From positions 1-21,076 of the IMG/VR virus record IMGVR_UViG_3300046008_000516: a stretch of 21,076 nucleotides of DNA; one strand, given 5' to 3'. The position numbers were made by a program, and so were the translations under genes. Every line of letters starts with the position of its first letter. Position 1 is the stretch's first letter. Below the pieces are notes generated by a model, which was not told the origin of the DNA, searched no databases, and saw only the letters and a program-made list of their open reading frames with translations. Shown piece after piece: positions 2,093 to 6,907 of this stretch. This stretch comes from a virus.

Positions 2093-3031
2093 TTAGAAGA
2101 AGTCTTCCAACGAAGATTGTTCTTCCGATGTCCAACCTAAAGGAGCAATTAACGTATTACAAGAATTTAAAAACGCCTTCTCAAACATTAATTCCTTATC
2201 CACATATTTATGTAATCCAAACTCAACTGGCAATTTACCAACAAAACCAATTACATTTTCTTTACTAGGATTTCGCTTGTCCAAATAAAGGTATTTTATT
2301 TTGTTCCCTTCGAAAATCTTTTCGTATCTATCAGTAAGGTTCATTTCATCAAGATGATGGTTATACAATAAAGCTGCCCTAGAGTTAATTGGTGTACCCT
2401 GTGTATAAATTGAATTAGGTGAACCAGAATAAACATTAACACCATTAACACCAGTAGGAATTGAAATATCCTCTACTGGAAATTTCATGAAATCGGATTT
2501 AAAATCAGCAACTTTTTTCTGTAACGTTTTTTCATCGCCGTATAATACAGTATCTAGTAATTCCTTTAATTCAGTTTTAACAACTGCTGGTGTAGATGAA
2601 CGGACAAGTTCTAATCCTGTAACTGCTTTTTTAGGCGTTGCGTAACGAACACCCTCATTATCATAAACAGAAATTATGTATTTCTTTTTTGCATGTAGTA
2701 AAAATCGGTCAGATAGCTTCTCCCTCTTCATAATCATCTTGTTTTCATAAGCATTAGTATATTCCGCTAACTCGTCATAAGATTTATTGATAATTGGTTG
2801 TAATACTTTATCGCAAAACTTATCCATAAAATCAATTTTAGCTTCTACTGATTTATCCTTTACTGGAGATGAATTAACAATATCCTTTAACGAAATAAAA
2901 TTAGAATTATGGACACAAATATCATTAGCAAAAAAGTTATGATTATCCTCGACTTCGATATCGAATACATCTAATTCTATTTCACCTAAATCTTCAATTA
3001 CAAAATTATTATAAAATTTTACTTCTAACAT
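2093..3031 (-). CDS. 43: Split-intein C half fused to the C-terminal part of DNA polymerase
   Basis: Residues 1-42 are the C-terminal half of a split intein. They end in the block F/G signature NFFANDICVHN, with the penultimate His and terminal Asn. Residue 43 (Ser, codon 2905-2903) is the +1 nucleophile and starts the C-extein, SNFISLKD. This continues family B polymerase directly after motif C (compare T4 DTDSVYVCVDKV). The remaining 270 residues are the rest of the palm and the thumb, a length close to that part of T4 gp43. The last residues (SSLEDFF) resemble the clamp-binding tail of gp43. The gene has its own AAAAGGTAA Shine-Dalgarno inside the endonuclease gene, 23 bases of which it overlaps. 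This supports separate translation and protein trans-splicing with the N half encoded at 3466-4372. Confidence 0.93.
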   Translation of the reverse strand: MLEVKFYNNFVIEDLGEIELDVFDIEVEDNHNFFANDICVHNSNFISLKDIVNSSPVKDKSVEAKIDFMDKFCDKVLQPIINKSYDELAEYTNAYENKMIMKREKLSDRFLLHAKKKYIISVYDNEGVRYATPKKAVTGLELVRSSTPAVVKTELKELLDTVLYGDEKTLQKKVADFKSDFMKFPVEDISIPTGVNGVNVYSGSPNSIYTQGTPINSRAALLYNHHLDEMNLTDRYEKIFEGNKIKYLYLDKRNPSKENVIGFVGKLPVEFGLHKYVDKELMFEKAFLNSCNTLIAPLGWTSEEQSSLEDFF

Positions 3032-3521
3032 ATTCGGTTACCTTTTCAATTGTTTCTAATTTATTATTTCGGAAATCATACTCCCAAACGTAATAAATGT
3101 CCATATTACGTTCTTCTAATAAAGCGGCTTTCTTTTTAATATCTTTATTCCATATTTCTTGTGCAGTTTTATTCGTATACCCTCTAAATTTCGGGATATC
3201 TGTTGATTTAAATATAGCTGGTTTTGCTTGATATAAAATCATCTTGTCTAAAGTAACTTTATTACCAATTTCAAGAATCCTTTTATATCTTTCGATTAAA
3301 TTTTCTGTTTGATTAGATTCTATAAAATTTGGGATTGTATGCTTAAATACATTTTGTAATTTTAAATCGTTATCGATACAATCCAATAAAAATTTAGCAA
3401 CTGCATCTATACATTCATCTGATGCAGTTAAATTACTTTTATTCATTTTATCAATAACTTTATCTCTAGCTTGAGATAAAGATAAGTTCATCTGTTTTAA
3501 TGATTTCAGTAGGCTTGACAT
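3009..3521 (-). CDS. Vsr-like homing endonuclease nested in the split intein
   Basis: A 170-residue protein is encoded between the two intein halves, in different frames that overlap both (56 bases with the N half, 23 with the C half). Its C-terminal part, about residues 119-153 (TAQEIWNKDIKKKAALLEER, then YYVWEYDF), resembles the core of very-short-patch-repair-like endonucleases. That family is known to occur as free-standing genes inside split-intein 'fractured genes' of phages, and I-Bth0305I is a member. I cannot place all catalytic residues with confidence. It would cut intein-less polymerase genes and spread the cassette. The start is uncertain: ATG 3521 or ATG 3491, neither with a strong Shine-Dalgarno. 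The alternative is an unrelated ORF, but its position and the YYVWE motif argue against that. Confidence 0.7.
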   Translation of the reverse strand: MSSLLKSLKQMNLSLSQARDKVIDKMNKSNLTASDECIDAVAKFLLDCIDNDLKLQNVFKHTIPNFIESNQTENLIERYKRILEIGNKVTLDKMILYQAKPAIFKSTDIPKFRGYTNKTAQEIWNKDIKKKAALLEERNMDIYYVWEYDFRNNKLETIEKVTEYVRSKIL

Positions 3522-4372
3522 TTAAAATTTTACCATCTCTTTTAATTATAATACTATGATCCGCTGTAACTTCAACGGACTTACCATTTAATGTAATTCT
3601 AAACATTTTCTTTTTTACCTTATGTTTCATTACATACTTAATTTTTTTAGATTCTAATTCTTGTGTTTCTGGATTAATACTTAACGTAAATGTATCGTCA
3701 ACAGGTTTTACATAGTCCTTATTTAATTCATCCCGTTTAATAAATACCTGACAACTATCATAAAATGATTCTATTGATTGTTCTAACCCATTGATTCTTA
3801 TTACAGAATCACCCGCAACACTATCGGTATCGGCGTAAAGAACGTAATCTTTATCTTTAGTTTTTAACATTTCTCCTAACTTTTCATTAAATGTATTAGA
3901 AATCCATCTAATTGCTAACTGCCCTGCCAACGTAATTGTTGTTGCCATCCTAATATCAAAGAATAAAAAGTTAGATTCTCCTAAACTGCCATATAAGCTG
4001 TTAATCTTTTTCATTCAGTATAGATTCGTTATTTCTATACCCGTCAATTAAGACAGCTATATATCCCTATATAGAATAGACTATCTCTTCACATCTAATA
4101 ATAGTGTGCTGTGCGCTTCCAATCACTTGATTGTACTTCCCGTAGGAATAGTCGTTACACCTTCAACAGAGTGACATCTATCGACGTTAAACTGAGGCTT
4201 GGCACGGTATTGTCTGTTCTAGATATCCACCGTTTTCACACAGTTTTAAATCACCTAACAGTTAAGCGATTTTAATGGCTAATTGCTCATTATCTTTTGT
4301 TGATATTGTTTGTGTTAAATGTTTTTTATAGTCTAATAATTCTTGTTTAGACATTTCATTGATTTGTTTCAT
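3466..4372 (-). CDS. 43: DNA polymerase fingers/palm fragment with split-intein N half (spliced over a group I intron)
   Basis: Exon 1 (4372-4265) encodes 36 residues from MKQINEMSKQ to DNEQLAIKIA. Exon 2 starts at 4005 with INSLYGSLG, so the spliced product restores family B motif B (K-I-A-I-N-S-L-Y-G). Motif C follows as YADTD, and the intein begins at Ser (3822-3820). Its block A is SVAGDS and its block B is VTADHS, with Thr and His three apart. The intein half is 118 residues and ends at the stop at 3466. The start is set by AAGGAG nine bases upstream, directly after an in-frame TAA that ends the preceding polymerase fragment. Product: about 97 polymerase residues plus IntN, to be joined to the 2093-3031 product. 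Without intron removal the message encodes only 36 residues, because the intron begins with TAA. Confidence 0.9.
4006..4264 (-). ncRNA. ORF-less group I intron (about 259 nt) in polymerase motif B
   Basis: The sequence shows the parts of a self-splicing group I intron. P1: exon AAATCGCT (4272-4265) pairs with GGTGATTT (4255-4248), with a U-G pair at the splice site. P10: CTGTTA (4261-4256) pairs with TAACAG of the 3' exon. A core segment CTAGAACAGACAATACCGTG is similar to the T4 td intron core. P7: GACTAT (4153-4148) pairs with ATAGTC (4084-4079). The intron ends in G at 4006 and starts with an in-frame TAA. Precise removal joins LAIKIA to INSLYG in frame. There is no endonuclease ORF inside. 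The class is probably IA by similarity to td; that subgroup call is inference. Confidence 0.88.
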
Positions 4373-4381
4373 TTCAACTCC

Positions 4382-5746
4382 TTAAATTTCAGATAAACGT
4401 TTCTTAACTAATTCCAACTCTTGTTCAAGTTTTAATTGTTCCTTTCTGACTTCTTTTCTTCTATTATAATATGATAACATTAACTCAGGAAGGAAACCTC
4501 TTTCTTCTTTTTTATAACACCAACCACTAGGAGTTTTAATTAAGCCATCATCTGGTAACGGTTTTTTAGCTAATAAGTAATCTACATCAATATCAGGGTA
4601 ATAAACGTCCGTTAACATTTCTGGACTGATATTATACTGAATAATTAGATGTGGATATAATGATGCTAAATCCATAGATGCAACCCACTCATGCATACCA
4701 ACGATTGGATCTTTAACATAGGCACCTGGATAAGATTCTTTAACTTTGCCGTGCTTTTGTAAAGGCATCGTTGTTTTCTTTTTATTCAAGTAATTAAAGA
4801 TAAGTGTTTCCCACATACCAACTGGAGAATAAACATCTTCGTAATTAATTTTTGCAAGATAAGCGATACCAATATGCAGTTTAATCATACCTTCTTTTTC
4901 TTCGAAGTCCGTGATTAACATAGTATCGATAATGTTATAATCCACGAATTTATTCCAGCACAATTGTTTTAGTTGGTTATCTAGTTTAATATAGTCTTCA
5001 CTAATTGTAACAAATTGATCACGTTGGAATGCTAACTGTTGTAAATCGTTACCATTTTGGTCTGGAATTGGGTTGCCGTTATAAAAGTCTTTGAATTGTT
5101 CGAATTCATCGTGGTTGACTTTTGTGTGTCCTAAAACTTCTTGTGCGATATGGTCTAATTTATATGATTCATAAGTACCGCGACCATATTTTTTGAATAG
5201 TTCCATGTAGTCTAGGTTACTGATTCCGAATAATCTGATGCAGATGTTTCTGTCTTCTCCGTCTTTGATGAATGCTTTGGCTGCTGGTGATTTTGGTGGA
5301 CATGGTTTACAGATATTAAATGGTGAAAGTTGGTTAGTAATGTCTTTGCCTAAGACTTTAGTCATTCGGTGGTATACATAAGGAATATCAAACGTATTAT
5401 TATTCCACCCCGTGATCACATCAGGTTGATTATTTTTCCAATGATTAAGGAATTTAAGTAGTAGTTCTTTTTCGTTTTCTGTGTAGATGTAATTTGGGTT
5501 GTGCCCGGTATAAGGTTTGCTACCGAAAGTGATGGGTGTTTTTGTTTTGAAGTCGACTAAGGTGATTAAAAGGATTTCTTGTACTGGGTTACGCCAATTA
5601 GGAAAAGAACCATCATTATAATTAGTATAATAAGTTGTTTCGTTCCAACTAACCCATGAATTTGTTAATTCATCAAAAACTTCATAATCGGCTGTATTAT
5701 AATTGTCTAAAAATTCATTAATCAGTATTTCTTGATAATTGTTCAT
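4382..5746 (-). CDS. 43: DNA polymerase middle fragment: exonuclease and palm motif A
   Basis: This 454-residue fragment carries Exo II (TGWNNNTFD, 112-120), Exo III (YNIID, 270-274) and polymerase motif A (SMDLASLYPHLI, 357-368, catalytic Asp 359). It lacks Exo I, which is encoded at 6506-6907, and motifs B and C, which lie downstream. Homology seems to begin only near residue 46 (GSFPNWRNPVQEI). The first 45 residues have no obvious counterpart and may derive from the insertion event. The ATG follows an AGAAGGA sequence about 12 bases away, inside the tail of the degenerate HNH gene. It ends (KKRLSEI) in the fingers domain at a TAA that is in frame with the next fragment. A split between motifs A and B is also known in some T4-like Aeromonas phages. 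Confidence 0.93.
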   Translation of the reverse strand: MNNYQEILINEFLDNYNTADYEVFDELTNSWVSWNETTYYTNYNDGSFPNWRNPVQEILLITLVDFKTKTPITFGSKPYTGHNPNYIYTENEKELLLKFLNHWKNNQPDVITGWNNNTFDIPYVYHRMTKVLGKDITNQLSPFNICKPCPPKSPAAKAFIKDGEDRNICIRLFGISNLDYMELFKKYGRGTYESYKLDHIAQEVLGHTKVNHDEFEQFKDFYNGNPIPDQNGNDLQQLAFQRDQFVTISEDYIKLDNQLKQLCWNKFVDYNIIDTMLITDFEEKEGMIKLHIGIAYLAKINYEDVYSPVGMWETLIFNYLNKKKTTMPLQKHGKVKESYPGAYVKDPIVGMHEWVASMDLASLYPHLIIQYNISPEMLTDVYYPDIDVDYLLAKKPLPDDGLIKTPSGWCYKKEERGFLPELMLSYYNRRKEVRKEQLKLEQELELVKKRLSEI

Positions 5747-6499
5747 TTAAGTATTCATTCCTTCTATTAGTCATTCTTGTTTTCATTGCAAGCGTTCTAT
5801 CTTTAATATAATCTATAAATTCTTCTTCTGACATTTTCCCATATTTTTCTTGCTCTAAACGTTTTTGGTTTGTCTTTTTACCTTTTTTACCAGCAGATAT
5901 AGATTTACCTCTTTTTATATGATCGCATACCCATAAAGATTTTGAAAGTCGTTCTTTCTGTTATTCTTGTGTTAGTGAATTATTAAAATTTTTTAATCTT
6001 TCACTTTGTTCAGTTTTTTTACTATCATTTTCATATTGTATTTTTTGAAAATGATTTGGTAAAAATTTTTTATCGCTTTTAATATTAACTTCGAAAGTTT
6101 CATTACAACCGCAAATACATATTCTAGTAATAAATTTATTTTTAATACCATTTATAATTTTTAACCTACCTTCTTCTGTTTTACTTGGATGATTTTCAAC
6201 AAATAATTTTCTACACCAATCATATTTTCTATTATTATTCCTATTTCCATTATGCGAATCTATAGACATAAATCTAAATGCGCAAATTAAGCTAGAAATA
6301 TATTGTGTATTTTTATATATTTTAACTAATAATGCATGAGCGGTATAATGTTCTCTAGCAAATAATCTAATTAGATTAGACTTACTATCATCACCGTTCA
6401 TACATTTAGGAATAATATGATGGACTTCAGTATAGTCAGTTTCTTTATAAATACGTTGTTTTGCATTATCAATTAAAGTTAATTATATTTAAATGACAT
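5718..6499 (-). pseudogene. Degenerate HNH homing endonuclease inserted in the polymerase gene
   Basis: The conceptual protein has the phage HNH signature DYTEVHHIIPKC...DSKSNLIRL...REHYTAH, a cysteine pair region (CICGCNETF) and a basic tail (DHIKRGKS, then GKKGKKTNQ). It appears broken twice. The likely start (ATG 6499, MSFKYN) is one base out of frame with the HNH part. An in-frame TAA at 5963-5961 separates NNSLTQE from QKERLSKSLWVCDH, which continues open for 80 codons to 5718. The longest intact ATG ORF (6401-5961) begins after the first HNH histidines. No group I intron core is visible around it, so it looks like a free-standing gene that split gene 43. A sequencing error or an unusual start codon could mimic decay. 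Confidence 0.7.
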
Positions 6500-6505
6500 A
6501 GAGAT

Positions 6506-6907
6506 TTATGATTTATTTTTTCTAATTTTTATTTTTTTATTGCCAAAATTCATGGATGCAGTTGTTTCAATATCGATTGCAACGATGTTTAGTTTATCGA
6601 TGTCCCATTGGATTTCTTCTGGATATTGTTCTGATATAAATTGCGCGACATAATTAGGGTACCCGTTGACAATGATTCCAGATGTATTTTTATATTGTTC
6701 GATAAAATTATCTGTGTCTTTCATTGATCCAGGTTTAATAGGATAAACTGGGATTTCGTCTCTCATTGTTTTCCATTGGTCGCTTTTATCCTTACTGGAG
6801 CTGACATACATAGTTGGTTTAAAATCAATGATTTCTGTTCCAGTATCGAATCTGGCATAGATTTTGTCATTCATTTTGAATACATTAGTGTATAATTTAC
6901 TACTCAT
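6506..6907 (-). CDS. 43: DNA polymerase N-terminal fragment with Exo I
   Basis: This 133-residue fragment matches the N-terminal domain of T4-type family B polymerase. It has the PGSMKD segment near residue 59, then NIVAIDIETT, where Asp112 and Glu114 are the Exo I metal ligands of the 3'-5' proofreading site. Homology stops right after Exo I. The tail (NKKIKIRKNKS) is basic and looks like scar sequence. The rest of the exonuclease domain is encoded in the 4382-5746 gene, beyond a degenerate HNH gene. To proofread, this piece would have to associate with the other fragments non-covalently. A CGGAG Shine-Dalgarno precedes the ATG, and a TATAAT box lies 38 bases upstream of it. Confidence 0.92.
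   Translation of the reverse strand: MSSKLYTNVFKMNDKIYARFDTGTEIIDFKPTMYVSSSKDKSDQWKTMRDEIPVYPIKPGSMKDTDNFIEQYKNTSGIIVNGYPNYVAQFISEQYPEEIQWDIDKLNIVAIDIETTASMNFGNKKIKIRKNKS

What the first reader, a model, noticed from the sequence alone, without database searches (positions are those of the whole stretch)
5718..6499. HNH homing endonuclease in decay inside gene 43
The HNH signature is intact, but the start is out of frame by one base and a TAA at 5961-5963 interrupts a reading frame that continues for 80 codons with clear family character (SLWVCDHIKRGKS). This fits the decay phase of the homing cycle, while the split it caused in the polymerase persists.
Basis: partly seen in the sequence, partly recalled or inferred. 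Interest (0 to 1): 0.6.

Follow-up and report, generated by a model that had tools for sequence, protein, structure and literature searches.

The report
Decayed homing nuclease splitting phage polymerase
A selfish DNA-cutting gene that long ago broke a virus's DNA polymerase gene in two has itself just been disabled here by two mutations, while related viruses carry working copies, recently transferred copies or an untouched polymerase at exactly the same spot.

Summary
On the minus strand, 6499-5718 holds a complete HNH homing-endonuclease gene with two lesions: a shifted reading frame just after the ATG and a TAA at 5961-5963. It sits between two parts of a T4-type gene 43. A second assembly (L001) carries the same lesions.

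At least 15 other uncultivated T4-like virus contigs have an open HNH gene at the same site, between a 43A ending in ..IKIRKK(T) and a 43B beginning ..YEVWDE..W. These align through both lesions. The 80 codons after the TAA are 38-48% identical to their C-termini.

Unsplit polymerases of Stenotrophomonas phage Yut2 and Xanthomonas phage X1 show the empty site. L033 and L055 share about 99% of the HNH block inside flanks at about 81%, the footprint of recent homing. Empty, active and decayed stages therefore all occur at one site.

The split lies inside the proofreading exonuclease domain, unlike the known fingers-domain split of Aeromonas phages. In this window gene 43 is broken further: a bare fingers split, an ORF-less group I intron and a split intein. 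All catalytic motifs survive, so a multi-chain polymerase is probable but untested.

The parts
6506..6907 (-). 43A: N-terminal piece of T4-type DNA polymerase gp43 (133 aa) with exonuclease motif I (AIDIETT); ends in the conserved tail KIKIRKNKS*
   Evidence: phrog_262 and phrog_2062 DNA polymerase; 34-38% identity to intact gp43; same tail in all split relatives
5718..6499 (-). Decayed HNH homing endonuclease gene (about 257 codons if read through)
   Evidence: phrog_655, E 3.6e-37; open homologues at the same site
6479..6484 (-). Lesion 1: reading-frame shift between the six-codon start frame (MSFKYN*) and the HNH frame opening at 6482
   Evidence: three-frame translation; homologues read MNYxxIYxxLI..HHIIP in one frame
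5961..5963 (-). Lesion 2: in-frame TAA
   Evidence: no stop at this column in any open homologue
5721..5960 (-). 80 codons after the TAA: conserved C-terminal part of the HNH family (RGK.IS..KKGKKTNQ)
   Evidence: tblastn E 1e-11 to 1e-18, 38-48% identity to L022, L023, L025, L033, L043, L084 and others
4382..5746 (-). 43B: exonuclease motifs II and III and polymerase motif A (454 aa). The first about 44 aa continue a native insert of the exonuclease domain; the ATG overlaps the end of the HNH frame
   Evidence: Pfam DNA_pol_B_exo1 6.8e-17 and DNA_pol_B 1.1e-12; N-terminal stretch aligned with unsplit Yut2 and X1
4265..4372 (-). 43C exon 1, behind a strong ribosome-binding site (AAGGAG); begins after a bare split in the fingers domain
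   Evidence: frame reading; same structural position as 43A/43B of Aeromonas phages 25 and 44RR
4006..4264 (-). ORF-less group I intron. Core 4274-4057 matches Rfam; the ends are inferred from P1 pairing and the protein alignment (..QLAIKIA|INSLYG..)
   Evidence: RF00028, 53.1 bits against gathering 50, E 6.4e-13
3466..4005 (-). 43C exon 2: polymerase motif B, YADTD, then N-half of a split intein (from about 3822)
   Evidence: Pfam Intein_splicing 8.7e-7 and phrog_27191 1.8e-56
3009..3521 (-). 170-aa ORF between the intein halves, in the place where 'fractured gene' arrangements carry a free-standing endonuclease; identity not established
   Evidence: phrog_22677 unknown function 6.8e-10; no phage tblastn match
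2093..3031 (-). 43D: C-half of the split intein (..ANDICVHN|S, to about 2906) and C-terminal part of gp43
   Evidence: phrog_262 1.5e-85, Intein_splicing 9.3e-5

Best explanation
A free-standing HNH homing endonuclease gene inserted in an ancestor into a native loop of the gp43 proofreading-exonuclease domain, just downstream of motif I. It divided gene 43 into 43A and 43B. The two products are inferred to reassemble without splicing. The same nuclease still sits at this site, and at least once recently moved, in other T4-like viruses; there it is inferred to copy itself by cutting and gene conversion with short flanking tracts. In this virus the nuclease is dead, from a frame shift at its start and a TAA two thirds of the way through. 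The break in the polymerase stays, because only an exact deletion could undo it. Shown: the lesions, intact homologues at the same site, unsplit polymerases, the homing footprint, and intact polymerase motifs. Inferred: that the lesions abolish nuclease activity and that the polymerase pieces work together.
For: Open HNH genes at the same site in L022, L023, L025 (GTG start), L033, L043, L049, L055, L084, L186, L187, L188, L190, L194, L195 and L202, aligning through both lesions. Conserved 43A tail and 43B start. Empty site in Yut2, X1 and close IMG/VR records, where the same insert is read in one frame. Homing footprint L033 vs L055: 8 differences in 865 bases of the HNH block against 441 in 2338 of 43B (Fisher p 8e-54), with the conserved block reaching into both polymerase flanks; HNH dS 0.012 against 1.77 in 43B. 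Purifying selection on open copies, L043/L084 dN 0.135, dS 0.69. Same lesions in L001. No group I intron around the HNH gene.
Against: Only one other assembly of this virus is known, nearly identical, and it may share its source population. No expression data exist. The endonuclease activity and target site of the family are untested. HNH and 43B distances are correlated (Mantel r 0.90, p 0.0002), so most copies look vertically inherited and clear horizontal transfer is seen in one cluster only.
Confidence: 0.87

Rival explanations
1. The gene is functional in two parts, or is expressed by programmed frameshifting and stop readthrough.
For: Both frames keep family-conserved residues (84% of conserved positions), and the two assemblies agree.
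Against: 15 or more homologues have one open frame. The only window of overlap for the start shift is one codon between two stops, with no slippery heptamer. The next ATG (6401) lies after the catalytic HH. TAA is the ordinary stop of neighbouring genes, including 43A and 43B.
Confidence: 0.06
2. The lesions are sequencing or assembly errors.
For: Metagenome contigs; AT-rich stretch.
Against: An assembly from another IMG metagenome number is identical over the whole gene.
Confidence: 0.03
3. The HNH gene lies in a group I intron, so that 43A and 43B are spliced at RNA level.
For: Phage HNH genes often sit in introns; this same gene 43 has a group I intron farther down.
Against: No intron match at the HNH site here or in L033 and L188, in searches of about 1 kb stretches; a search of a shorter stretch finds the real intron. 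43B starts with an ATG, and its N-terminal stretch is conserved as protein.
Confidence: 0.03
4. The whole gene 43 is decaying, and the window shows a dead polymerase, not a split working one.
For: Four ORFs, an intron and a split intein in one gene.
Against: Every catalytic motif (exo I, II, III; pol A, B, C) and the intein junction residues are intact in frame, and each piece has its own start. Gene 43 is a core gene of T4-like phages. The 43A/43B enzyme of phage 25 is reported active (PMC2988022).
Confidence: 0.08

Closest known systems
Split gene 43 of Aeromonas phages 25 and 44RR (43A / seg-type HEG / 43B with a group IA2 intron; IC-UTS)
   Same: T4-type polB split into separately translated pieces, with a free-standing homing endonuclease and a group I intron in the same gene. 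The window's 43B/43C break lies at the same fingers position; the phage 25 intron is also found by Rfam.
   Different: The HNH split here is in the exonuclease domain after motif I, with another endonuclease family. The intron is about 7 codons upstream of the phage 25 one. A split intein is present as well.
mobE in nrdA of Aeromonas phage Aeh1 and mobA in topoisomerase gene 60 of T4
   Same: Free-standing homing endonuclease splits an essential phage gene whose products still work as separate chains (PMC2988022).
   Different: Other target genes; here the endonuclease is dead and the split remains.
phrog_655 HNH homing endonucleases of T4-like phages (e.g. next to uvsW in Tequatrovirus)
   Same: Same HNH core, about 30-36% identity.
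   Different: Different C-terminal half and a different site. The C-terminal module RG..IS..KKGKKTNQ defines a subfamily seen here mainly in gene 43.
Truncated HEG in the gene 43 intron of phage JSE and in T4 nrdB
   Same: A dead homing endonuclease left in a phage gene (PMC2993671).
   Different: Those lie in introns; here the dead gene separates two coding pieces.

Membership tests
HNH homing endonuclease (phrog_655) | Profile match over the catalytic domain | tested here: met
   130 bits, E 3.6e-37, residues 3-156
HNH homing endonuclease (phrog_655) | Catalytic HH and N of the HNH motif present | tested here: met
   VHHIIPKCMNGDDSKSN and REHYTAH align with open copies
HNH homing endonuclease (phrog_655) | One open reading frame with a usable start | tested here: not met
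   Frame shift at the start and TAA at 5961-5963; hence a pseudogene of the family
Free-standing homing endonuclease gene | Occupied and empty alleles of one site | tested here: met
   15 or more occupied loci; unsplit Yut2, X1 and IMG/VR records
Free-standing homing endonuclease gene | Transfer by gene conversion with short flanking tracts | tested here: met
   In relatives L033/L055; not testable for the window copy
Free-standing homing endonuclease gene | Cuts the empty allele | not testable with these tools
   Needs a cleavage assay with an open homologue
Group I intron-encoded endonuclease | Group I intron core around the ORF | tested here: not met
   No match at the HNH site in the window, L033 or L188
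Split gp43 DNA polymerase | All exonuclease and polymerase motifs kept across the pieces | tested here: met
   Sequence reading and alignments
Split gp43 DNA polymerase | Pieces co-purify and polymerise | not testable with these tools
   Reported for phage 25 only (PMC2988022)
Fractured gene (split intein around a free-standing endonuclease) | Intein N- and C-halves at one site with an ORF between | tested here: met
   Intein_splicing halves at motif C, below Pfam's gathering score but with E 8.7e-7 and 9.3e-5; ORF 3009-3521
Fractured gene (split intein around a free-standing endonuclease) | The ORF is a Vsr-like endonuclease | tested here: inconclusive
   Only MTES_1575 at E 0.099, phrog_22677 of unknown function, no useful PDB match

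The most novel reading that the evidence does not exclude
A working replicative polymerase made of three chains (43A, 43B, and 43C joined to 43D by protein trans-splicing, with 43C needing group I self-splicing). Its proofreading active site is divided between two polypeptides because an exonuclease-domain split, conserved across many T4-like viruses, has outlived its endonuclease.
Probability: 0.5. Interest if true: 0.68.

Novelty: new member of a known kind. Interest (0 to 1): 0.48.

Why it matters
Free-standing homing endonucleases in phages are expected to go through invasion, fixation and decay, but the stages are rarely seen at one site. Here one site in an essential gene shows empty, recently homed, long-held and decayed alleles in natural viruses. 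It also shows that the damage can be one-way: the nuclease dies and the polymerase stays in pieces. The split runs through the proofreading exonuclease, so the system gives a direct test of how a divided replicative polymerase assembles and keeps its fidelity.

Tried and rejected
Group I intron at the HNH site: rejected.

The 43A tail and 43B N-terminal extension as part of the mobile element, or as a new docking or intein-like module: considered because both are conserved next to the HNH gene. Rejected when unsplit Yut2 and X1 polymerases showed the same stretch in one frame.

Tail tests with PHROGs, Pfam and phage tblastn gave nothing. Only environmental loci resolved it.

Plain protein scans of viral contigs with the window HNH and 43A found only the same virus. 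A first regular-expression count of unsplit loci was wrong (minimum gap too long) and was redone.

Whole-window Rfam scan missed the group I intron; a short-stretch search found it.

L203 was first read as a second decayed copy, but its five in-frame stops are all TAG, so it is left open.

Full report
What is in the sequence. The region is read on the minus strand. An ATG at 6499 opens six codons (MSFKYN) and stops. The HNH frame lies one base away, opens at 6482 and contains TEVHHIIPKCMNGDDSKSN..REHYTAH. It is closed by TAA at 5963-5961 and then stays open for 80 more codons to 5720. There is no ATG, GTG or TTG in the HNH frame upstream of the catalytic HH. The protein matches phrog_655 homing endonuclease at E 3.6e-37. 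The flanking ORFs 6907-6506 and 5746-4382 are parts of a T4-type DNA polymerase gp43.

Are the lesions real? A second assembly, IMGVR_UViG_3300042328_000646 (L001), is identical to the window over 8446 bases except one base at 3126. How independent the two samples are is unknown.

Homologues. A profile scan of IMG/VR with the HNH family, and a second with its C-terminal module, gave loci in which an HNH gene sits between 43A and 43B. L022 (cut at the contig start), L023, L025, L033, L043, L049, L055, L084, L186, L187, L188, L190, L194, L195 and L202 each have one open HNH frame of about 260-290 codons. L193 is a near-copy of L055. L023, L033, L043, L084 and others start with ATG; L025 starts with GTG. 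The alignment passes through both lesion points without a break. The window's 80 codons after the TAA are 38-48% identical to their C-termini. The window keeps 48 of 57 family-conserved residues, within the range of open copies (81-98%), so decay is recent.

The site. 43A ends in ..KIKIRKKT* (window KIKIRKNKS*), and 43B starts with a stretch ..ITLGEF..YEVWDE..W... This stretch is absent from most cyanophage-type polymerases, where motif I and the next conserved block are 4 residues apart (76 loci). In Stenotrophomonas phage Yut2 and Xanthomonas phage X1 it is present in one unbroken frame; in Yut2 it reads DIEVRTDGYDDEDEAQVRRVFSNEAETWTVGEIRNYDGAAQYEVYDLMHDRWYPIES. IMG/VR records L205-L207 agree. 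The HNH gene therefore entered a native insert of the exonuclease domain with almost no loss of polymerase codons. No intron is found there.

Homing in relatives. L033 against L055 (different metagenomes): about 81% nucleotide identity in 43B and similar upstream. In the block holding the HNH gene there are 8 differences in 865 bases, against 441 in 2338 bases of 43B (Fisher p 8e-54). The conserved block reaches into the polymerase coding sequence on each side, by roughly 40-150 bases. HNH dS is 0.012 against 1.77 for 43B. L049 and L055 differ by about 15% upstream and are nearly identical from just before the HNH start onward. These are footprints of recent transfer at this site. Across all loci HNH and 43B distances are correlated (Mantel r 0.90, p 0.0002; rank correlation only 0.52), so older history is mainly vertical. 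dN/dS of open copies is about 0.2 (L043/L084), so they are under purifying selection.

Rest of gene 43. After 43B there is a second, bare break at the tip of the fingers, with a strong ribosome-binding site before 43C. This is the same place as the 43A/43B break of Aeromonas phages 25 and 44RR. Inside 43C a group I intron (RF00028, 53.1 bits) interrupts ..QLAIKIA|INSLYG; its ends are my inference from the P1 pairing ATCGCT/GGTGAT and the protein alignment. At motif C, YADTD is followed by the N-half of a split intein; the C-half lies in 43D (..DICVHN|SNFISL), with a 170-aa ORF between them. Joined, the polymerase reads YADTDSNFISL. Exo I is in 43A; exo II, exo III and motif A are in 43B; motifs B and C are in 43C with 43D. 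All are intact. That a multi-chain enzyme works is inference. The precedent is the split enzyme of phage 25, reported to co-purify and polymerise (PMC2988022).

Judgement. The finding is a dead member of a known kind of element at an insertion site for which I found no earlier report in the papers searched. The searched library lacks most subscription journals, including the main paper on gp43 insertions (J Mol Biol 2010, 395:457), so novelty of the site is not proven. The homing cycle model (PMC3229294) predicts the stages seen.

Noticed in passing
L033, L049, L055 about 3834-4890: HNH gene and a short stretch of polymerase on either side nearly identical between viruses otherwise about 81% identical: a footprint of recent homing in nature.
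   Followed up: yes
window 4264-4006: ORF-less group I intron between KIA and INSLYG of gene 43; missed by whole-window Rfam scans and found only in a short-stretch search.
   Followed up: partly
window 3822-2906: Split intein at polymerase motif C (YADTD|S), with a 170-aa ORF of unestablished identity between the halves, overlapping both.
   Followed up: partly
L203 1-580: HNH remnant at the same site with five in-frame stops, all TAG, and no TAG in the 43B frame; could be amber recoding or decay. No suppressor tRNA found in the 5 kb held.
   Followed up: partly
L204 3982-4720: At the same site the HNH N-terminal domain is not recognisable and the tail has stops; possibly another decayed or replaced copy.
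   Followed up: no
L023 5774-6334: A second, different HNH-like ORF splits the same gene 43 again, between polymerase motif A and the fingers, so L023 gene 43 is in three pieces.
   Followed up: no
L049 versus L055, around 3771: Sharp change from about 85% to about 100% identity just before the HNH gene, continuing through 43B and beyond; looks like one-sided co-conversion or a recombination breakpoint.
   Followed up: no
L199, L200, L201: Genes with the same C-terminal module (about 28% identity) outside gene 43, in viruses with a different neighbourhood.
   Followed up: no
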